DNA from: Synechococcales cyanobacterium GL140_1_metabat_312
GTDB taxonomy: Bacteria > Cyanobacteriota > Cyanobacteriia > Leptolyngbyales > Leptolyngbyaceae
Direction of reading: 5' to 3'
NCBI GenBank assembly: GCA_025351345.1
Contig: JANXWB010000076.1
Location: 1-40,853, forward strand
Length of the DNA: 40,853 nt
Below, one piece after another: positions 4,315-40,439 of this stretch. The notes beneath the pieces were generated by a model, which worked only from the letters and a program-made list of their open reading frames with translations, was not told the DNA's origin and did no database searches. Every line of letters begins with the position of its first letter. Positions within the stretch are counted from its first letter, which is position 1. Position numbers and translations under genes: made by a program.

Positions 4315-5589
4315 TTAGAGGCGAAAGATACGATCGGACTGTCTTAAAACCTTACCCAAAACCGATCGAAGCTTACGCCATAGGTAGGAGACCAATCCCT
4401 TTGAGGCTTTCTCAAATTTGTAATAGAACAAAATATCAACGACATCTTCAAGTGTTAAAGGCCGGAGATAGTTCACCACCCGATCGACCAATCGGTCAGA
4501 ATCCGCCAAATATTTTTTCAATCCTAGCTTTTCAGAACGAGTCCAAGACTTCAAAAAAACCTGATGCATTTCCTGTTGGTAGCCATCAAAATTTTGCCCC
4601 GTTCCTTTCAGATAACGATCGATGTACTTCACCGAAATCTCGCTACTCTCCATCGCATGACGAATTCCCTCACCGCCCAAAAAATTAATCGTCGAAACCG
4701 CATCCCCAACGGCAATCACGGAGCCATCAACATACTTATCCTTCAATCCTAAACTATAACGAACCGTACCACCATGACGTTCAACAATAGAATAGTCTGT
4801 GGGTTTGATATGTTGATCAATAATCAATTGAATATAATGCTTTAATGGCTGCATTTCTTTAACAAATTCATGGGGCAAATTAACAATGCCCGCCCCCACC
4901 TTCAATCGTCGATTCTCCATAGGAAAAATCCACGAATACCCTTTCGGCATCCATTTATAACCCAAGAAAAATGTCAATGCATTAGCACTCCGATCGTAAG
5001 CCGCCTCATCCACTTCAATCAAAAATTCCACCCCCGTTCCCGTAATCAATTCTGGTTGATCCTTTGGGTTGGCATACATCAGCGATCGGTTAGGTCCCGT
5101 CGCATCCACCAACAAGCGAGCCTCAATCACCACATCAGTCCGATCTCGGCGAACTTGAACTATGGTCCGATCGCCACTCCGATCGCCTTTTTCACAAGCC
5201 ACAGTTTTATGACTAATATACAAACAATTCAGCCAGACCTCACTGCCATGGGCAATGGTTTCATCCGCTAAAAACGATCGTAACTTAGCAAAATCTAGAA
5301 CACTTCCTTGAATTTGAGGCGATCGCCATTTTCCAGTTTGATTTGACGTAACAATAGAAATTTCATTCCAAAAACTACCCACAACAGATTCAGGAATTTG
5401 ATATTTAGTTAATGTTTCATTTGGGGTTCCAGAACTCGAAAAACTATTAACATTAAAATTCTTATAGCGCTCAATAAGCAACACACGATGCCCCAATTGC
5501 GACAGCTTCCGCGCACAATGTCCACCCGCTGGCCCCGCACCCACAACCACAACATCAAAAGAATTGCTCACCGCTTCCATACTCGTCAC
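4315..5589 (-). CDS. Geranylgeranyl-reductase-family FAD oxidoreductase
   Basis: FAD-dependent oxidoreductase of unknown substrate. The ADP-binding motif is VVVVGAGPAGG (13-23), a glutamate ends the second strand (LLIER, 38-41), GYSWIFP (217-223) resembles the GYxWIFP of geranylgeranyl reductases, and the second FAD motif is GDAVSTINFLGGEGI (295-309). It differs clearly from the ChlP proteins I know, so it need not act on chlorophyll or tocopherol side chains; a carotenoid, quinone or lipid prenyl chain is possible. The C-terminal third is basic. The GTG at 5589 has AAGGG about ten bases upstream; an ATG three codons later (5580) is an alternative. It sits between a J-domain protein and bvdR. 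Confidence 0.75.
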   Translation of the reverse strand: MTSMEAVSNSFDVVVVGAGPAGGHCARKLSQLGHRVLLIERYKNFNVNSFSSSGTPNETLTKYQIPESVVGSFWNEISIVTSNQTGKWRSPQIQGSVLDFAKLRSFLADETIAHGSEVWLNCLYISHKTVACEKGDRSGDRTIVQVRRDRTDVVIEARLLVDATGPNRSLMYANPKDQPELITGTGVEFLIEVDEAAYDRSANALTFFLGYKWMPKGYSWIFPMENRRLKVGAGIVNLPHEFVKEMQPLKHYIQLIIDQHIKPTDYSIVERHGGTVRYSLGLKDKYVDGSVIAVGDAVSTINFLGGEGIRHAMESSEISVKYIDRYLKGTGQNFDGYQQEMHQVFLKSWTRSEKLGLKKYLADSDRLVDRVVNYLRPLTLEDVVDILFYYKFEKASKGLVSYLWRKLRSVLGKVLRQSDRIFRL

Positions 5590-5687
5590 TCTGAATTGCC
5601 CTTAGATATCGAGATATTGTTCTCAAATATTGTAATCTCGAATTGGATATGAAATAGACCATCAATAAAATCACTAGGATCTTAAAA

Positions 5688-6224
5688 TCACGATCGAGAA
5701 CTATAGTCCGAGAGCTTCCGCAGAGCATAATAAAAGCTAACTACGCTTACCAAAATTACTAATATTTGCGGATAAGCTGCAAACACCATCGCCAACTGCA
5801 ACATCAGAAATACTAAAACAACCACACCCGGCATCAAAACAAGACCATATATCCGAGCCTTAGTTGCTAAACTTAACCGATCGAACCATGTTTTCGATCG
5901 CATTGCATCATGAAAGCTGGATGCCACATTCCACACTTGGGGATCAGGCGATCGCTCAGATTTACTATCGGGTGTTCTAGCCTCTGTTCTACGATCGGCT
6001 CGTTTTTGTCGAAGTTTTTGCTGAGCTTGCAGCAGTGGAACCAACGTTTCGTAGGCCAGATTGAGCTGTTTTAACTTAGCCTCAGCGCGTTCCTGTAAAC
6101 GAGGACTGTGGGTAAACCTGTCAGGGTGCCATACCTGTACGAGATCCTTGTAGGCTTGCTTTGCATCCTCCAGCCCTACCGGAGGTACCAAGTCTAAAAC
6201 ATTACAACACTGGTGATAGTCCAT
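5688..6224 (-). CDS. Membrane-anchored J-domain protein
   Basis: An N-terminal J domain (about residues 3-62) contains the HPD tripeptide at 33-35 that stimulates Hsp70 ATPase activity. A charged Arg/Lys-rich linker follows, and then two hydrophobic helices at about 125-165 that should place it in the cytoplasmic or thylakoid membrane with the J domain in the cytoplasm. It lacks a Gly/Phe region, zinc finger and substrate-binding domain, so it is a class C (DnaJ-like) co-chaperone that recruits DnaK to a membrane site. The J domain begins at the first residues, which supports the ATG at 6224. The next gene on the strand, the flavoprotein, starts 98 bp further. Its client is unknown. Confidence 0.75.
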   Translation of the reverse strand: MDYHQCCNVLDLVPPVGLEDAKQAYKDLVQVWHPDRFTHSPRLQERAEAKLKQLNLAYETLVPLLQAQQKLRQKRADRRTEARTPDSKSERSPDPQVWNVASSFHDAMRSKTWFDRLSLATKARIYGLVLMPGVVVLVFLMLQLAMVFAAYPQILVILVSVVSFYYALRKLSDYSSRS

Positions 6225-6388
6225 ACCTAAATCATTGATTTAAAACCGTGCGCCCTTATGATCGTACCCCGCAACTCCCCACCGCGCACTAAAATTCAAC
6301 CCTGAACAATAACGTGAACAATTGGCACTTAGCCCTAGAATAGAGTTAGTCATATCCAAACCGTTGTAGATCCTCAAGTAGAGACCCC

Positions 6389-7609
6389 GTGAGCGCAAGA
6401 AGACTGAACGACGGAGAAAAGAAAATAATTGTGGGGCTATACCGCGAATCCGGTGAGACGGCCATGAGTCTTGCTGAGCAGTTTGGGGTGAGCAACACAA
6501 CGATTAGCCGCATTCTGAAGGCAGGCATTGAGAGCGTTGAATACGATCGTCTCATTCAGCAAAAGCGTCGAGGCGTTGACAATACTCCTACTCTAAACAT
6601 CACTATTCCAGCCCTCCTAGAGTTACCCGAAGCTCTAGCCATTCCAGAGCCTGTAACGATTCCAGACCCGGAACCCGTCTCACCCACCAACGAACTCGAT
6701 TCCTCTGGCAGGCGTTTGCGACGACGACGGACTACATCAGAACCGATCGTTGAAGCTAACCTTATTGAGATCAATGCTGAAATGACTGAGCCGATCGAAG
6801 TACCGACCATTGAACCGATCGCTAGAGAAATAACTACCGAAAAAGCATCTACTGAAAAGCAATCCATCGTCAGCGTAGTTCCAGCATTTGTACAAAATTT
6901 CCAGAAGAATTTCCAATCTCCCGATCGCATGAACGATCGTTTCCCGAGCCTGAACCCAATCTCGACACCAGCTAATGCAGAACCTAACGCAAAAGTTGAA
7001 CTAGAATCTAGCCTTGAAGCAGACCTTGAACCAGAATCGTTACCAGAACGCCCTGTGCGGAAAGTTATTCAGGTCGGCGTTCCAAAGCGTAGACCAGTTG
7101 AGTTAGACGATGATGATGACGACGACGACGATATTCTTCCTCCAGTCACCGAAGAAATCTCTGCAATACTAGATGAGGACTTTAGTGAAGATGAGGAGGG
7201 TGACGACGATGATGATAGTGATGAGGACGACGACGATGGAGAAACTTATACTGACGCGGAGGCTCAACGAGATTTAACGGCATTGCATATTCAACAGTTC
7301 ATGCGGGTCATTCCCCTAGATCAAGCGTTGATGCCTCGTATTTGTTATGTGGTCGTCGATCGATCGGCAGAACTAGTTGTACGCCCCTTGAAAGACTTTG
7401 GGGATACGGGCCAAGTCGCGATCAGCAGCGATCAGACCATGACACTCCCTATTTTTGACAATCCTCGCGGAGCTAAGCGGTTTGCCAATGCCCGAACAGA
7501 ACGAGTCATTAAAGTCCCTGACAGTCAAGTGTTTCACAAAACATCTGATAATTTGCGTTCTAAAGGAATTACCTATCTATTCATAGAAGGGCAGCTTTAC
7601 AGTCTTTAA
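6389..7609 (+). CDS. HTH protein with Asp/Glu-rich middle, cyanobacterial
   Basis: A 406-residue protein with three parts. Residues about 5-50 form a homeodomain-like helix-turn-helix (LYRESGETAMSLAEQFGVSN, then TTISRIL) of the sort found at the start of transposases. Residues about 235-285 are extremely acidic, with a run of nine Asp and further Asp/Glu blocks. Residues about 295-406 form a compact domain ending KGITYLFIEGQLYSL, which I recall as conserved in cyanobacterial proteins with the same HTH. No DDE/DDD catalytic core is present, so it is not a transposase despite the likely database label. A DNA-binding or nucleoid role is an inference. The start is GTG at 6389, immediately before the HTH. 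It is convergent with the membrane protein at 7740-8783. Confidence 0.7.
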   Translation: MSARRLNDGEKKIIVGLYRESGETAMSLAEQFGVSNTTISRILKAGIESVEYDRLIQQKRRGVDNTPTLNITIPALLELPEALAIPEPVTIPDPEPVSPTNELDSSGRRLRRRRTTSEPIVEANLIEINAEMTEPIEVPTIEPIAREITTEKASTEKQSIVSVVPAFVQNFQKNFQSPDRMNDRFPSLNPISTPANAEPNAKVELESSLEADLEPESLPERPVRKVIQVGVPKRRPVELDDDDDDDDDILPPVTEEISAILDEDFSEDEEGDDDDDSDEDDDDGETYTDAEAQRDLTALHIQQFMRVIPLDQALMPRICYVVVDRSAELVVRPLKDFGDTGQVAISSDQTMTLPIFDNPRGAKRFANARTERVIKVPDSQVFHKTSDNLRSKGITYLFIEGQLYSL

Positions 7610-7636
7610 TGAATCTTTATTAGAGACTACGATCAA

Positions 7637-7673
7637 ATAAAAAAGCGAACTCAGCTAGGGTCCGATTTTTTAT
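7637..7673. terminator. Imperfect bidirectional terminator
   Basis: Sixteen-base arms (7637-7652 and 7658-7673) flank a five-base loop with three mismatched or wobble positions. The arms start with A-rich and end with T-rich runs, so either strand can give a stem followed by U's. It lies between the convergent HTH gene and the membrane-protein gene. Confidence 0.5.
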
Positions 7674-7739
7674 TAAATGAAATAATGACTTAAAACAATC
7701 AATTGATTAAGATAATCATTCTAAGTCATTACCTTCAAA

Positions 7740-34184: not shown

Positions 34185-35582
34185 ATGATGGAAAATACTC
34201 TTGAAAACGCGATCGAAAACGTCGTCATCATTGGATCCGGTCCTGCGGGATATACGGCGGCGATTTATGCAGGGCGAGCGAACTTAAAGCCGTTGATGTT
34301 TGAAGGACAACACATGGGCGGGGTTCCGGGCGGGCAACTCATGACGACGTTGGAGGTCGAGAATTTCCCTGGATTTCCGGAGGGCATTACGGGACCAGAG
34401 TTAATGGTGCGGATGAAGGCTCAGGCGGCACGGTGGGGTACGGAGTTGTACACAGAAGATGTGATTTCGGTGGATTTGAGTCAGCGGCCTTTTGTAATTA
34501 CTTCTACCGATCGGACGGTGCGCGCCCACAGTATTATTATTGCGACCGGAGCGACGGCCAAGCGATTGGGGTTGCCGAGTGAAGCGCAATATTGGAATTC
34601 GGGAATGTCGGCTTGTGCTATTTGTGATGGGGCTTCGCCAATTTTTAAAAATGTGCCGTTGGTGATTATTGGCGGCGGCGATACGGCGGCTGAAGAGGGC
34701 GTGTATTTAACGAAGTATGGGACTCATGTTCATATGTTGGTGCGGGGCGACAAATTACGAGCGAGTAAGGCCATGCAAGATCGGGTTTTGAATAATCCGA
34801 AAATTACGGTTCATTGGAATACGGAAGCGATCGATGTGTTTGGTGAGAATGGTTTTCTAACAGGCGTGAAGGTGCGCGATCGGTTAACCCAAGCGACTAA
34901 AGATATTCCAGCGAAAGGGTTATTTTATGCGATCGGGCATAGTCCAAATACTGATATTTTCAAAGGTCAATTAGAACTCGATGCGACTGGATATATTGTT
35001 CCGCAAATTGGGACGGTGAAGACGAATATTGAGGGTGTATATGCGGCGGGTGATGTGCAAGATCATGAATATCGCCAAGCGATTACGGCGGCAGGAACAG
35101 GTTGTGCTGCTGCACTTCTAGCAGAACGCTATTTGTCGATGAATGGTTTAGACGTTGAATTCCATCAAACTGAAAATCATACGGCTGAGACTACTGAAGT
35201 TGCGACTAAACAAACTCCTTCTGAAGCGCAGAAACAAACTACTTCAGCAAATTTTGATATTACGGCAACACGCTATGTGGGCGGCTATGCATTGCGTAAG
35301 TTGTATCACGAGACCGATCGGTTAATTATGGTGAAGTATTCGTCGCCGACCTGTGGACCTTGTCATAGTTTGAGTCCGATTTTAAGTAAGGTTGTGGGTG
35401 AGTTTGAAGGCCGAATGCATTACATTGAAATTGACATTACGGAAGATCCTGAAATCGCTGAGTCAGGGGGCGTAGTGGGCACTCCGACTATTCAATTTTT
35501 TAAGAATAAAGAGAAGGTTGCAGAACTTATGGGCGTAAAGTCGAAGAGTCAATATCGGGAGACGATCGAGACTTATCTTTAA
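34185..35582 (+). CDS. ntrC: NADPH-thioredoxin reductase C (TrxR-Trx fusion)
   Basis: Bifunctional NADPH-dependent thioredoxin system that reduces 2-Cys peroxiredoxin and other targets in cyanobacteria and chloroplasts. Residues 10-330 are thioredoxin reductase: FAD motif GSGPAGY (17-23), redox centre CAIC (144-147, in [14 protein letters not shown]) and NADPH motif [11 protein letters not shown] (161-171). A variable linker (about 335-360) joins it to a thioredoxin domain with active site CGPC (390-393). The gene symbol is that of NTRC and should not be confused with the nitrogen regulator NtrC. It starts at tandem ATG codons, 34185 and 34188. Confidence 0.96.
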
Positions 35583-35690
35583 AATTGAGAATATTGAATT
35601 GAGAGTTGAGAAAGGGACGATCGCGTTGCTTGAAAAATAGTTCACAAAGTTCTAAAAAGCAAGGAAATTGTCTCTTTCTAAGTCTCTAAA

Positions 35691-35861
35691 CCGATCGATG
35701 CGCCCGCCAGACTATTTCAACTTAATGTGCTCGATACTGAGTTGGCAATTTGTCGTGCCGCTTGGAAAGCACCTGCACCGCTCTATACCCGTGGAGTATT
35801 AGCGAAATATACCAAACTTGTTTCATCAAGCCCTTTGGGTGCGGTGACAGATTTGGGCTAG
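35691..35861 (+). pseudogene. ilvD: Remnant of the ilvD 3' end (dihydroxy-acid dehydratase)
   Basis: The plus-strand frame is open from 35682, after an in-frame TAA, to TAG 35859-35861. It reads as the last 55 or so residues of Ilv[19 protein letters not shown], then [20 protein letters not shown] and [11 protein letters not shown]. Compared with the IlvD end I know (RRAAW ... [26 protein letters not shown]), RR has become IC, APRYTRG is APLYTRG and SSSS has become SSSP, as expected of a decaying copy. There is no start codon with a ribosome binding site and the rest of ilvD, about 500 codons, is missing. A working ilvD must lie elsewhere because leucine synthesis is retained. A terminator follows. 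Confidence 0.85.
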
Positions 35862-35875
35862 GGCTAGGGATTAGT

Positions 35876-37093
35876 TTAAAGGGTGTTTGACAAGTCCGAT
35901 CGTTCTTGCCTAAATAGAGGGACGATCGGGCTTTTTACTACAGGTATTTTTAGGGTATGTGTATCTAGTGTTTTTATGAGTTTATGACCTATTTTCTCAG
36001 CAAGAAGAACAGGAACCGCATTGCCAATCTGCCGCATAGCTTCTCCCCAAACACCCTTAATCACAAAGTCCGGAGGAAATGTTTGCAGTAGTTTCGCCTC
36101 ACATACAGTCAAGTATCGGACCTTCCCATCTGCAAAACGAATCATGTTCTCCCCTCCCGGAACGCCGTGATCTCCAGCTTTGATCGTTTTTGCGGGTGAA
36201 TCTAGGGTGCTGCCCGTATGTCCTGGATAAATTCGTGCGCCATTACGAAATATGTGGTCACTTATTCCATGATTAGACTGAGGATTTGGCAGATTGTGAA
36301 GCGTGTCTCTAACCGTTTGCCAAGCCATAAAGGTTGGTTCAAATGCCCCATACTTCTCTGAAAGTCTAAACGATTTATCTTCTATTAATTTATCTATCAG
36401 TGGGCGATTAGATTTACATATTTTGTGCTTTTCCCAGTATTCTCCCGTAACATACATATCCCAAAATAGTTTTTCTGACGAATGAGTTTCTGCTGGGAAT
36501 GACCAAAGACAGTCTAAATCAGACCTAATCCCCACAATTATCACACGCTCTCGGGTTTGGGGCACTCCATAATTTGCTGAATTAATTAGTTTAAACTGGA
36601 CGTTATATGTTGTTCCTGAATAAGAGTGTCGGCTTACCTTACGGAGTTCATCTAGCTGCTGTCGCCAATCGAAAATTGCTTTTGTAATCAGATTTGGGTA
36701 GGTTAGGCTAAGAATAATGTAATCGAAATAGTCAGCAAATGTTTGGCGAAGTAACCCTTTAACATTTTCAAATATGAAAGCTTTCGGTTTAAGCTTTTCG
36801 ATCGCACGTATTGCATAGGGAAACATATCACGATCGTCCTGCTCACCTTTGTGTTTCCCCCCAAGGGAGAATGGCTGGCATGGAGGACCACCTGCAACAA
36901 TCTCAATATTGTCTAACATTTCTAGATTGAAGTCTCTTACATCCCCGAAAAAAATGTTTCTTGGCTCGAAATTTTCACATAGAGAGGCATAAGCATGTTT
37001 ATTAGACTCAACAAGTGCAGCGTGTTTTAAGCCGGACAATTCTAGGCCTTTTGCCAAACCACCTGCGCCAGAGAACAGTTCAAGAGAATTCAT
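35876..37093 (-). CDS. DNA (cytosine-5) methyltransferase of a type II system
   Basis: C5-type DNA methyltransferase of 405 residues. Motif I is LELFSGAGGLAKGLE (4-18), motif IV with the nucleophile C72 is GGPPCQPFS (68-76), motif VI is FENVKGL, motif VIII QTRERVIIVG and motif X GNAVPVLLAEK. The target-recognition region (about 205-320) should set the sequence methylated. The start overlaps the restriction gene by four bases (ATGA), so the two are translationally coupled. The last 19 residues (KSPIVPLFRQERSDLSNTL) are encoded antisense to the terminator of the ilvD relic and probably do not belong to the original enzyme. CGATCG is scarcer here than in the rest of the window. Confidence 0.93.
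   Translation of the reverse strand: MNSLELFSGAGGLAKGLELSGLKHAALVESNKHAYASLCENFEPRNIFFGDVRDFNLEMLDNIEIVAGGPPCQPFSLGGKHKGEQDDRDMFPYAIRAIEKLKPKAFIFENVKGLLRQTFADYFDYIILSLTYPNLITKAIFDWRQQLDELRKVSRHSYSGTTYNVQFKLINSANYGVPQTRERVIIVGIRSDLDCLWSFPAETHSSEKLFWDMYVTGEYWEKHKICKSNRPLIDKLIEDKSFRLSEKYGAFEPTFMAWQTVRDTLHNLPNPQSNHGISDHIFRNGARIYPGHTGSTLDSPAKTIKAGDHGVPGGENMIRFADGKVRYLTVCEAKLLQTFPPDFVIKGVWGEAMRQIGNAVPVLLAEKIGHKLIKTLDTHTLKIPVVKSPIVPLFRQERSDLSNTL
35893..35936 (+). terminator. Rho-independent terminator of the ilvD relic
   Basis: AGTCCGATCGT (35893-35903) pairs with ACGATCGGGCT (35922-35932) with one U-G, and a five-T tract (35932-35936) begins at the last paired base. It lies 31 bp after the ilvD stop, where the native ilvD terminator should be. 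It also lies inside the 3' end of the methyltransferase gene on the other strand. Confidence 0.8.
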
Positions 37094-37737
37094 CGTTGTT
37101 CCTCGATGGTTCTCAGATGACGTTCAATGTTTGAAAATATAATGCTTTCATTTTTAGGTGTACCGTTGCAACGCTCCGCCCAAGATCTCCCTGGATGTAT
37201 TACATCCCAGTCCGATTTTGCTTGTTCATATCTCCCCCGTCCGGGATCATGATTCCCGAATCCATCAACAGCAACATTCCAAAGCGGTCGATTGAGCTTG
37301 ATTAAAGCTGCCTCAATTGTGCCGATCATATCCGATCCTTCATCCTCAAAGATAACGAAACGGCACATGAAATCCTCAAGGGAAAGCCCTGCACCAACTA
37401 CAATATTCCTGCTATGTTCTCTCAAACGGTTGTTTAGCTCACGAGATTGATTTAGGGCACTATCTGAAATACGAGACTGCCGCCATCCTTTTGGAACAGC
37501 TTTACCAACATATATGGGATAGTTGTAAGCAAGTCGATTTAACTCTGAATACTTCTTATAAAGGGGATTCGGACCAATATAATAAAGCGCATAAACTCCA
37601 GTTCCCAGAAAGATTTCAGGAGGTAGAAGGGAATGAACGGGTGTACCGTTAAAAAATCTAACGGCATCTTTAACGAGTTCAGCAAAGGCGTCGTTTCTGT
37701 ATAGGTGCTTCTTTCTGTCAAAAGGGTTAGACTGCAT
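37090..37737 (-). CDS. Eco29kI-like GIY-YIG restriction endonuclease
   Basis: Type II restriction enzyme of the GIY-YIG superfamily. The two strand motifs are GVYALYY (47-53) and PIYVGKA (74-80), about 27 residues apart; a following helix (NNRLREHSR) supplies the catalytic arginine region, and NRPLWN the asparagine near residue 152. The family founders Eco29kI and NgoMIII cut CCGCGG, so that is the predicted site. The gene precedes its methyltransferase and overlaps it by ATGA. No controller-protein gene is seen. ATG at 37737. Confidence 0.85.
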   Translation of the reverse strand: MQSNPFDRKKHLYRNDAFAELVKDAVRFFNGTPVHSLLPPEIFLGTGVYALYYIGPNPLYKKYSELNRLAYNYPIYVGKAVPKGWRQSRISDSALNQSRELNNRLREHSRNIVVGAGLSLEDFMCRFVIFEDEGSDMIGTIEAALIKLNRPLWNVAVDGFGNHDPGRGRYEQAKSDWDVIHPGRSWAERCNGTPKNESIIFSNIERHLRTIEEQR

Positions 37738-37880
37738 CGTCTTAGAATTTGTTTAATTTATTTAAAGAGGAAAAGTTTTGCATTGACTACAGTGAAGACT
37801 AACTCCGAAGACAACAATAACTGAAATTACCCTCTTAGAGAAGTGCTACGATCGGATTAAACCATTTCCGAAACTCTACC

Positions 37881-40439
37881 ATGTCTAGAACTGCCTTCGA
37901 TTCACCAAAATATAAATCCTTCCAACTCCCCGGCGCAAAGCCTCAATATAATCCCGATCGCTATGGTCAAGTCACCCACATTGCCCTAGACCTAAAACTC
38001 GACATTCCTAATCAAATTTGTAGCGGAACCTGCACGACTACTCTAACTCCTATTCGTAATGGCATCACCTCGATCGTTATGGATGCGGTTGATATGGAAA
38101 TTATTTCTATTCAGATATTGAGCGAAGATCAAAAATATGATTACGATGGGAAGCAAATTAGGATCGAGCTTACCAATGAGATAACTATTGGCAAACCGAT
38201 CGATTTAGAAATTGCCTATAAATTAGACAAGCCCGATCGGGGAATGTACTTTGTTCAGCCAAATGAATATTTTCCAAATAAACCAACGCAAGTCTGGACC
38301 CAAGGCGAGGACGAGGATTCACGCTATTGGTTTCCCTGTTTTGACTATCCGGGACAGTTGGCGAGTTCTGAAATTCGGGTGGAAGTTCCCAGTAGTTTTA
38401 CGGCTATTTCTAATGGGAAATTAGACAAGGTTGAAGATAAATCAGATTCTAAAATTTATCACTGGATTCAAACCGAAGTTCACCCGACTTACTTAATGAC
38501 CTTAGCCGTCGGAGAATTCAGTGAAATTCGGGACGAATGGAATGGTAAGGACATCACCTACTACTTTGAAAAAGGCAAAGACCACGAAGCCCGTTTGACT
38601 ATGGGCAAAACCCCGCGCATGGTCGAATTCTTCAGCCAAACCTACGGCTATCCCTACGCCTATCCCAAATATGCCCAAGTTTGCGTTGATGACTTCATTT
38701 TCGGCGGCATGGAAAACACGTCTACAACATTGCTCACCGATCGGTGCCTGATTGACGATCGGGCTGCTATTGATAACCTCCGCGCCGAAACTCTGGTCGC
38801 CCACGAACTAGCTCATCAATGGTTTGGCGATTTGGTGGTGATTAAACATTGGTCCCATGCTTGGGTAAAAGAAGGTGCGGCGACCTATGCAGAAGTATTG
38901 TGGTTGACCCATGAATATAGTTCAGATTTAGGCCGATATTATTGGCTAGGACAGGCGCGAGAATATTTAGACGAAGACAGCAACCGCTATCGTCGGCCCC
39001 TCGTGACCCATGTTTACCGGGAAGCGATAGAACTTTACGATCGGCATATTTATGAAAAAGGTGCTTGTGTCTATCACATGATGCGGACTGAATTGGGCGA
39101 TGAATTGTTCTTTAAAACCATGGCCACGTTCCTGCATGACAATGCTCACAATACTGTGGAGACCATTGATCTGCTTCGGGCTGTGGAAAAAACAACCGGA
39201 CGCAATCTAACCTTCTTGTTTGATCAATATGTTTATCGCGGTGGACATCCTGACTACAAGGTTGAATACAGTTGGGATAATGATTCTAAGCTTGCAAAAG
39301 TGGCGGTGACGCAAACGCAGGTGAATGATGGAGAAACAGATGGATTGTTTGATCTGAAGATTCCGATCGGATTTACAAGCAACGCTGTCAACAAGACATT
39401 CACCGTCCGAATTCACCAGCGTGAACAAGCCTTCTATTTCCCATTGGAATCCAAACCTGATTTTGTTAGCTTTGATGTTGGAAACAATACGCTTAAAACG
39501 GTCGAACTTGCCTACCCATTGCCCGAACTCAGTGCCCAACTTGTGCAAGATCCTGATTGTCTTTCCCGTCTGAATGCCGCAGAAGCGATCGCGAAAAAAG
39601 GGAATCTCGAAGCCCTAAAAACCTTAGAAAAAGCACTGTCTACTGAAGTTTTCTGGGGAGTCCGGCTTGAAATAGTAGAGGCGATCGCCACCATTAAACT
39701 TGATCAAGTTGGCGCAGTGTTAGCCCAAGCGCTGCAAGATCCCGAAGCCCGTGTCCGTCGAGCGGCCATCATTGCCCTCGCTGACCAAAAGACTGCCGCC
39801 GCCTATCAATCCGTCAAAGCGATCGTCGAAATGGGAGATCCTAGCTACACGACTGAATCCAGTGCGATCGCAGCCCTGGGAACCTTTGCTATGTCAGGAT
39901 TACCCGATGCGCCCGATGAATCAGAAGTCCTAGGGATTTTGAAATCGGTTTTAGAAACGCGGGATGGTTGGAATCAAGTCGTCCGATCGGGTGCGATCGC
40001 GGCACTTAGCAAAATGAAAACGTCTAGTGCTGCCCTAGAACTTCTGCAAACTCACACCAATCCCAATATTCCTCAATCCCTCCGCTTGGCAGCCATTCGG
40101 GCGTTAGGGTCGATTTCAACGGGACAGAATCCACCCCAACTCGAACAAATTTTAAATCGTCTACGGGAATTGTCCTGCGATCGGTTCTTTTTCACCCAGC
40201 TCGCGGTTATTTCGTCTTTAGGACAAATGGAAACAACGAAAGCGATTCCATTACTCAACAGCTTTGTGAATCTTCCCGATGGCCGAGTCAAACGCATGGC
40301 CGAAGAAGCGATTCAACGAGTCCAGCGTAAATCTGGCAGCGATGCCTCGGTCAAGCAACTGCGTGAAGAACTCGATGGCCTGAAGAAAGATAATAAAACC
40401 CTGACCAGTCGCCTCGAAGCTTTAGAGGCTAAGGGCTAA
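37881..40439 (+). CDS. pepN: M1 aminopeptidase with C-terminal HEAT repeats
   Basis: Zinc aminopeptidase of the M1 (aminopeptidase N) family. The substrate-anchoring GGMENTS (about 274-280) and zinc motif HELAH (308-312) with the third ligand in WVKEGAATYAE (about 20 residues on) are intact. The M1 core runs to about 465, a beta domain to about 555. The C-terminus is made of HEAT repeats (about 560-805; e.g. ALQDPEARVRRAAIIALAD), replacing the helical domain of classic PepN, and ends in a leucine-heptad coiled coil (about 825-850, LREELDGLKKDNKTLTSRLE). No signal peptide is present. It is 852 residues long and followed by a terminator. Confidence 0.92.
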   Translation: MSRTAFDSPKYKSFQLPGAKPQYNPDRYGQVTHIALDLKLDIPNQICSGTCTTTLTPIRNGITSIVMDAVDMEIISIQILSEDQKYDYDGKQIRIELTNEITIGKPIDLEIAYKLDKPDRGMYFVQPNEYFPNKPTQVWTQGEDEDSRYWFPCFDYPGQLASSEIRVEVPSSFTAISNGKLDKVEDKSDSKIYHWIQTEVHPTYLMTLAVGEFSEIRDEWNGKDITYYFEKGKDHEARLTMGKTPRMVEFFSQTYGYPYAYPKYAQVCVDDFIFGGMENTSTTLLTDRCLIDDRAAIDNLRAETLVAHELAHQWFGDLVVIKHWSHAWVKEGAATYAEVLWLTHEYSSDLGRYYWLGQAREYLDEDSNRYRRPLVTHVYREAIELYDRHIYEKGACVYHMMRTELGDELFFKTMATFLHDNAHNTVETIDLLRAVEKTTGRNLTFLFDQYVYRGGHPDYKVEYSWDNDSKLAKVAVTQTQVNDGETDGLFDLKIPIGFTSNAVNKTFTVRIHQREQAFYFPLESKPDFVSFDVGNNTLKTVELAYPLPELSAQLVQDPDCLSRLNAAEAIAKKGNLEALKTLEKALSTEVFWGVRLEIVEAIATIKLDQVGAVLAQALQDPEARVRRAAIIALADQKTAAAYQSVKAIVEMGDPSYTTESSAIAALGTFAMSGLPDAPDESEVLGILKSVLETRDGWNQVVRSGAIAALSKMKTSSAALELLQTHTNPNIPQSLRLAAIRALGSISTGQNPPQLEQILNRLRELSCDRFFFTQLAVISSLGQMETTKAIPLLNSFVNLPDGRVKRMAEEAIQRVQRKSGSDASVKQLREELDGLKKDNKTLTSRLEALEAKG

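What the first reader, a model, noticed from the sequence alone, without database searches (positions are those of the whole stretch)
35876..35960. Methyltransferase C-terminus read antisense through the ilvD terminator
The last 19 residues of the cytosine methyltransferase are encoded by the complement of the ilvD terminator hairpin and flank. The most likely history is that the module was joined next to the T-run (about 35937-35960), losing the native stop codon and reading on to a TAA at 35876. This fixes an insertion junction to within tens of bases and predicts a non-homologous tail on the enzyme. The ilvD-side terminator also points into the methyltransferase and could limit antisense transcription.
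Basis: partly seen in the sequence, partly recalled or inferred. Interest (0 to 1): 0.6.

Follow-up and report, generated by a model that had tools for sequence, protein, structure and literature searches.

The report
Methyltransferase tail borrowed from ilvD terminator
The last 25 or so amino acids of a restriction-modification methyltransferase are an accidental read-out of the back side of another gene's transcription terminator, and a sister species shows that this join is old and was later carried, with a scrap of that gene, to its present place.

Summary
Confirmed: the methyltransferase of an Eco29kI-type R-M pair (35876..37093, minus) ends in a tail encoded by the complement of an ilvD terminator hairpin (35893-35932). 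Family similarity ends near residue 376-378, also against M of pECO29. The tail resembles none of 81 relatives' tails (192 of 300 shuffles score as well). The ilvD part is about 25 residues, not 19.

Corrected: the window holds no ilvD gene, only its 3' scrap (35692-35867). The intact gene is on another contig with the same terminator, similar up to 35953. In a congener (G001) the same methyltransferase meets an intact ilvD tail-to-tail, so the R-M/ilvD join predates the present locus. The window's lineage then had a reciprocal rearrangement: trxB, whose older neighbour is an ABC transporter gene, now precedes [ilvD scrap-M-R-M1 peptidase], and ilvD precedes that transporter gene. The ilvD 3' end is present at both joins, as in duplication associated with inversion.

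New: the hairpin is the only terminator-like site found after trxB, whose own, seen in G001, has decayed. The methyltransferase gene has dS 0.085 between the two species against 0.30-0.56 for seven other genes, so it was probably exchanged recently. An ordinary read-out tail with a well-resolved history.

The parts
35876..37093 (-). C5-cytosine methyltransferase (M), 405 aa
   Evidence: ORF; PF00145 E 2.7e-58; 240 of 369 aligned core residues identical to M of plasmid pECO29
35966..37093 (-). Conserved M core, residues 1-376
   Evidence: Match to relatives ends at 376-378 in 51 of 80 loci;
35876..35965 (-). Non-homologous M tail (residues 377-405 and stop); residues 381-405 lie opposite DNA homologous to the ilvD 3' flank
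   Evidence: Best tail-tail score 24, reached by 192 of 300 shuffles, 81 relatives; ilvD flank similarity to 35953
35951..35965 (.). Old ilvD/M junction, located to about 15 bases
   Evidence: End of similarity between the two ilvD 3' flanks against end of M family similarity
35893..35936 (+). Intrinsic-terminator-like hairpin (15 pairs, loop 10) and T-run, native to ilvD
   Evidence: homologous hairpin after intact ilvD in G000 and G001
35692..35867 (+). ilvD 3' scrap (about the last 57 codons; early stop at 35859, native stop position 35865)
   Evidence: 152 of 171 bases identical to own intact ilvD, 150 of 171 to G001 ilvD; intact gene is ILVD_EDD by Pfam
35628..35691 (.). Rearrangement join trxB / ilvD scrap (filler)
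   Evidence: Similarity to the G001 trxB flank ends 35627; ilvD similarity starts 35692
34185..35582 (+). trxB fused to thioredoxin, left neighbour
35597..35625 (+). Decayed remnant of the trxB terminator seen in G001
   Evidence: G001 has a hairpin with T-run at L070:3061; the window keeps the 3' arm but not the 5' arm or the T-run, and scores no hit there
37090..37737 (-). Eco29kI-family restriction endonuclease (R), overlapping the M start
   Evidence: PF09517 E 1.1e-69
37738..37836 (.). Right edge of the R-M module before the M1 peptidase leader
   Evidence: Leader sequence shared with G003 begins about 37836
37881..40439 (+). M1 aminopeptidase with HEAT repeats, right neighbour
   Evidence: its first 158 bases or so follow R also in G001 C299, up to the contig end

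Best explanation
In the ancestor shared with congener G001 an Eco29kI-type R-M module lay directly behind ilvD: the end of the methyltransferase gene was joined to the far side of the ilvD terminator's T-run. Without a stop of its own there, the methyltransferase reads about 25 codons backwards through the terminator (shown). In the window's lineage a reciprocal rearrangement then exchanged what follows ilvD and what follows trxB, leaving intact ilvD with its terminator in front of the ABC transporter gene and a second copy of the ilvD 3' end, still attached to M-R-M1 peptidase, behind trxB (adjacencies shown; order and direction inferred from G001, G003 and other family members). A single inversion that duplicated the ilvD end at both breakpoints is the simplest mechanism (inferred). 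The tail is probably neutral; the terminator, still foldable, now probably ends trxB transcripts and keeps them out of M (inferred).
For: G001 C299: intact ilvD (566 aa) and M (411 aa, same tail but one residue, plus six more) overlap by 4 nt tail-to-tail, then R, then the M1 peptidase start. G000 C45: intact ilvD, same terminator, no M, then the ABC transporter-PIN-acnB block that in G001 follows trxB (gene labels). trxB and that transporter gene lie within 300 bases on one strand in G003, G005, G007, G010, G011 and G015 (6 of 40 other genomes searched), and on one contig 2.8 kb apart in G001. Match to relatives ends at 376-378 in 51 of 80 loci and the tails of 81 relatives are unlike it. The scrap differs from both ilvD genes at 11-12% of its coding bases, so the join is not an assembly fold of the intact gene. 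In G001 trxB has its own hairpin and T-run; in the window it is decayed and the ilvD hairpin is the only one found at 35583-36100.
Against: The genomes are draft contigs, so the two junctions cannot be placed on one chromosome and the inverted orientation of the two ilvD ends is untested. The duplicated segment ends within about 15 bases of the old ilvD/M junction, a coincidence the inversion model does not explain. The scrap's coding part does not say which ilvD it came from: of the sites where the two ilvD genes differ it agrees with G001 at 8 and with G000 at 10; in the flank 35863-35891 with G001 at 8 and G000 at 2, and in 35892-35955 with G001 at 8 and G000 at 0, the last inside the exchanged stretch. 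The roughly 850 bases between ilvD and the transporter gene in G000 have only two short matches of under 50 bases in the four genomes of the genus, so what first followed ilvD is unknown. In 34 of 40 other genomes trxB and the transporter gene were not seen adjacent. Terminator function and tail neutrality are not measured.
Confidence: 0.78

Rival explanations
1. The R-M module entered the window's locus by itself, at an ilvD gene that stood here, and the rest of ilvD was later deleted.
For: A 3' part of ilvD and its terminator are beside M.
Against: Intact ilvD with the same terminator is on another contig of the same genome; the sister species has the intact-ilvD/M join; trxB's older neighbour is the ABC transporter gene, not ilvD.
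Confidence: 0.06
2. The block [ilvD 3' end-M-R] arrived in the window's lineage by horizontal transfer from a G001-like donor and recombined in front of the resident M1 peptidase.
For: M and its tail are 97% identical to G001 (dS 0.085), far closer than other genes; 194 bases from 35892 are identical. The scrap's flank 35863-35891 agrees with G001 at 8 of 10 decided sites.
Against: R (dS 0.44) and M1 peptidase (0.37), in the same block in both species, have ordinary divergence, and the scrap's coding part is as far from G001 as from G000. Only M looks recently exchanged. Transfer alone does not explain why the transporter block stands behind ilvD.
Confidence: 0.14
3. The tail is a functional, selected C-terminus of the methyltransferase.
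For: Residues 377-401 are identical between the two species.
Against: With M at 0.027 changes per base, 73 identical bases have chance 0.14. The end moved (405 against 411 aa), and none of 81 relatives has a similar tail; M of pECO29 ends with an unrelated short tail, 2 of 13 aligned residues alike.
Confidence: 0.05

Closest known systems
Eco29kI restriction-modification system (plasmid pECO29)
   Same: Eco29kI-family endonuclease PF09517 upstream of a C5 methyltransferase, start of M overlapping the end of R; M core 240 of 369 aligned residues identical (gene overlap also in PMC3039593, passages)
   Different: Different neighbours; different C-terminal tail, read out of ilvD's terminator
[quoted passage not shown]
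   Same: Two reciprocal new joins with one flank segment present at both; mentioned for Helicobacter pylori and Thermus in passages of PMC3120642, PMC8963470, PMC4671568; the defining paper, Furuta 2011, is not held, so its definition is recalled
   Different: Inverted orientation not testable on contigs; here the copy is a non-coding scrap carrying a terminator
Insertion with long target duplication (Nobusato 2000, seen only as a reference in PMC3874152)
   Same: R-M module beside a duplicated piece of a resident gene (description recalled)
   Different: The copies do not flank the module on both sides; they lie at two different loci

Membership tests
Eco29kI-type R-M system | Eco29kI-family endonuclease | tested here: met
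   PF09517, 233.9 bits, cut-off 30.8
Eco29kI-type R-M system | C5 methyltransferase next to it, R before M with overlapping ends | tested here: met
   PF00145; R ends 37090, M starts 37093; same order in pECO29
Eco29kI-type R-M system | Recognition of CCGCGG | not testable with these tools
   Site of Eco29kI from PMC3039593 (passage); not inferred for this enzyme
DNA duplication associated with inversion | Reciprocal exchange of two adjacencies | tested here: met
   ilvD/M and trxB/ABC in G001 against trxB/scrap-M and ilvD/ABC in G000
DNA duplication associated with inversion | Segment duplicated at both breakpoints | tested here: met
   ilvD 3' end at window 35692-35953 and C45 7596-7858, 84% identical
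DNA duplication associated with inversion | The two copies in inverted orientation, bounding an inverted segment | not testable with these tools
   Copies are on different contigs (C66, C45)
Intrinsic (Rho-independent) terminator | Stable G+C-rich hairpin followed by a T-run | tested here: met
   the built-in scan with loop limit 8 did not list it
Intrinsic (Rho-independent) terminator | RNA 3' end after the hairpin | not testable with these tools
   No RNA data

The most novel reading that the evidence does not exclude
The rearrangement handed trxB a working terminator that had already become protein-coding on the other strand: trxB lost its own hairpin, and one stretch of DNA now serves as trxB's terminator and as the reading frame of a methyltransferase tail, so either gene's end constrains the other.
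Probability: 0.3. Interest if true: 0.45.

Novelty: new member of a known kind. Interest (0 to 1): 0.33.

Why it matters
It is a clean example of how a restriction-modification module's outer end is fixed by whatever lies beside it: the enzyme gains a tail from a neighbour's terminator, and the fused edge then travels with a scrap of that neighbour. The scrap marks where the module sat before, which helps in tracing the movements of such modules and the rearrangements around them. It also gives a testable case of one gene taking over another gene's terminator.

Tried and rejected
Tried: the built-in terminator scan, which did not list the hairpin. A test whether antisense terminators in M tails are a recurrent habit of R-M modules: of 33 chosen relatives plus L053 (34 in all), one (L119) has an opposite-strand hairpin overlapping the end of M and one (L116) has it beyond the stop, so it is not a habit. 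The 33 were picked from the 80 loci as closed M genes with R upstream; one of them (L111) has no R in its short contig; two open M genes (L106, L154) and the broken L142 were left out. A search for what originally followed ilvD, with the DNA between ilvD and the transporter gene, gave only two short matches besides itself. M1 peptidase's neighbour in G003 (argF) is next to tex in G000 and G001, so the peptidase's move separates G003 from both. G002 (69% complete) gave no trxB match at the limit used and only residues 1-293 of ilvD, so it did not help. Plasmid search: 39 records, 10 shown, all ending at residue 377. Phage search: 6 records, all shown, five ending at 376-377; the sixth (H16) was aligned to residue 403, but its own tail is ten residues unlike the window's (86 of 500 shuffles as good). 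L144, aligned to residue 399, was left out of the tail test because its frame is broken; its frame after the core reads another short tail. Repeats at the two joins: none within either stretch; the two stretches were not compared with each other for microhomology.

Literature: searches; one search returned nothing. Of papers I saw listings and passages only (PMC4671568, PMC3874152, PMC3039593, PMC3120642, PMC8963470). No statement is made that the pattern is absent from print.

Full report
Observation. The methyltransferase ORF runs from 37093 to 35876 on the minus strand (405 aa) and matches PF00145; the gene before it, 37737..37090, matches the Eco29kI endonuclease family PF09517. On the plus strand a 15-pair hairpin lies at 35893-35932 with TTTTT at 35932-35936; it folds at -24.1 kcal/mol against a shuffle mean of -14.35 (z -3.3). 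My finder saw no terminator-like site on the M strand at 35600-36100.

Where family similarity ends. In 80 loci from named genomes the match ends at residue 376-378 in 51, earlier in 7 and later in 22, up to 405. With five session relatives, 85 M genes were compared; 81 are closed and full, with a median of 10 residues beyond position 376. The window's 29-residue tail scores 24 against the best of them, a score that 192 of 300 shuffled tails reach; L105, the row matched to 405, scores 19. So the later ends are weak extensions. M of pECO29, the plasmid of Eco29kI, aligns over residues 1-377: 240 of 369 aligned core residues are identical, 2 of 13 in the tail. The tail of G013, the next closest session relative (68%), is different.

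ilvD. The same genome carries an intact ilvD on contig C45 (Pfam ILVD_EDD), 84% identical to window 35692-35953 including the hairpin, and unlike it beyond. The window copy is a scrap: about 57 codons, no start, a stop two codons early. M residues 381-405 lie opposite ilvD-derived DNA; the junction is at about 35951-35965.

The sister species. In G001, contig C299, an intact ilvD (4756..6456) meets M (6453..7688, minus, 411 aa) tail-to-tail with a 4-nt overlap; R and the start of the M1 peptidase follow, up to the contig end. M is 97% identical and its tail differs by one residue and six extra residues at the end. The join of M to the ilvD terminator is therefore shared by both species and is not tied to the window's locus.

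The rearrangement. In G001 trxB is followed, after 2.8 kb that hold an HNH gene, by an ABC transporter gene, a PIN gene and acnB. In the window's genome that block follows ilvD instead. In G003 trxB and the transporter gene are fewer than 40 bases apart, and they lie within 300 bases on one strand in five further genomes (G005, G007, G010, G011, G015): 6 of 40 other genomes searched. The G001 order at trxB is thus probably the older one. The change needs two breaks and leaves the ilvD 3' end at both new joins. This is the pattern called DNA duplication associated with inversion; I saw it mentioned in passages of PMC8963470, PMC3120642 and PMC4671568, and the original paper is not held. Orientation cannot be checked on contigs. 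The scrap differs from the intact gene at 19 of 171 bases, so an assembly artefact is unlikely.

An exchanged methyltransferase. Between G000 and G001, M has dS 0.085; R 0.44, trxB 0.45, M1 peptidase 0.37, ilvD 0.35, truB 0.51, ABC 0.56, hdrB-like 0.30 (truB is my label, from no call). A run of 194 identical bases begins at 35892, inside the tail (0 of 2000 shuffles of the columns reach it). The simplest reading is a recent exchange of M between the lineages that stopped near the hairpin. The identical tail is therefore no sign of selection: 73 unchanged bases have chance 0.14 at M's divergence.

Terminator reuse. G001 has a hairpin with a T-run directly after trxB. In the window the 3' arm remains but the 5' arm and T-run are gone, and the ilvD hairpin is the only terminator-like site my finder saw at 35583-36100. 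It probably now ends trxB transcripts before they run into M. This is inference from sequence.

Verdict. The kinds of event are known; the case is well resolved but of modest novelty.

Noticed in passing
35892-37108: The methyltransferase gene is far less diverged at silent sites from congener G001 (dS 0.085) than its own endonuclease partner (0.44) and six other genes (0.30-0.56): one half of an R-M pair seems to have been exchanged without the other.
   Followed up: partly
L052:8492-8632, L071:1-141, L072:1-179: In G001 the first part of the M1 peptidase gene occurs on contigs C299, C10 and C15; on C15 it runs into a transposase frame (DDE), which suggests a second, broken copy of this edge.
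   Followed up: no
L107 from 1050, L109 from 4001: Two relatives (records titled Verrucomicrobia and Akkermansia) carry 75-85 residue C-terminal extensions of the methyltransferase that share a LLDKPNP stretch, so some relatives may have a conserved extra tail.
   Followed up: no
L142:4001-4345: A Thiotrichales relative has a broken methyltransferase frame (114 aa before a stop) next to an endonuclease match covering only residues 1-74.
   Followed up: no
L003:5152-5664: A 170-aa ORF between intact ilvD and the ABC transporter gene has no Pfam match and its DNA has only short matches elsewhere in the genus.
   Followed up: partly
L070:4129-5037: An HNH endonuclease gene (PF14279) sits between trxB and the ABC transporter gene in G001 but not in G003, where the two are fewer than 40 bases apart.
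   Followed up: partly
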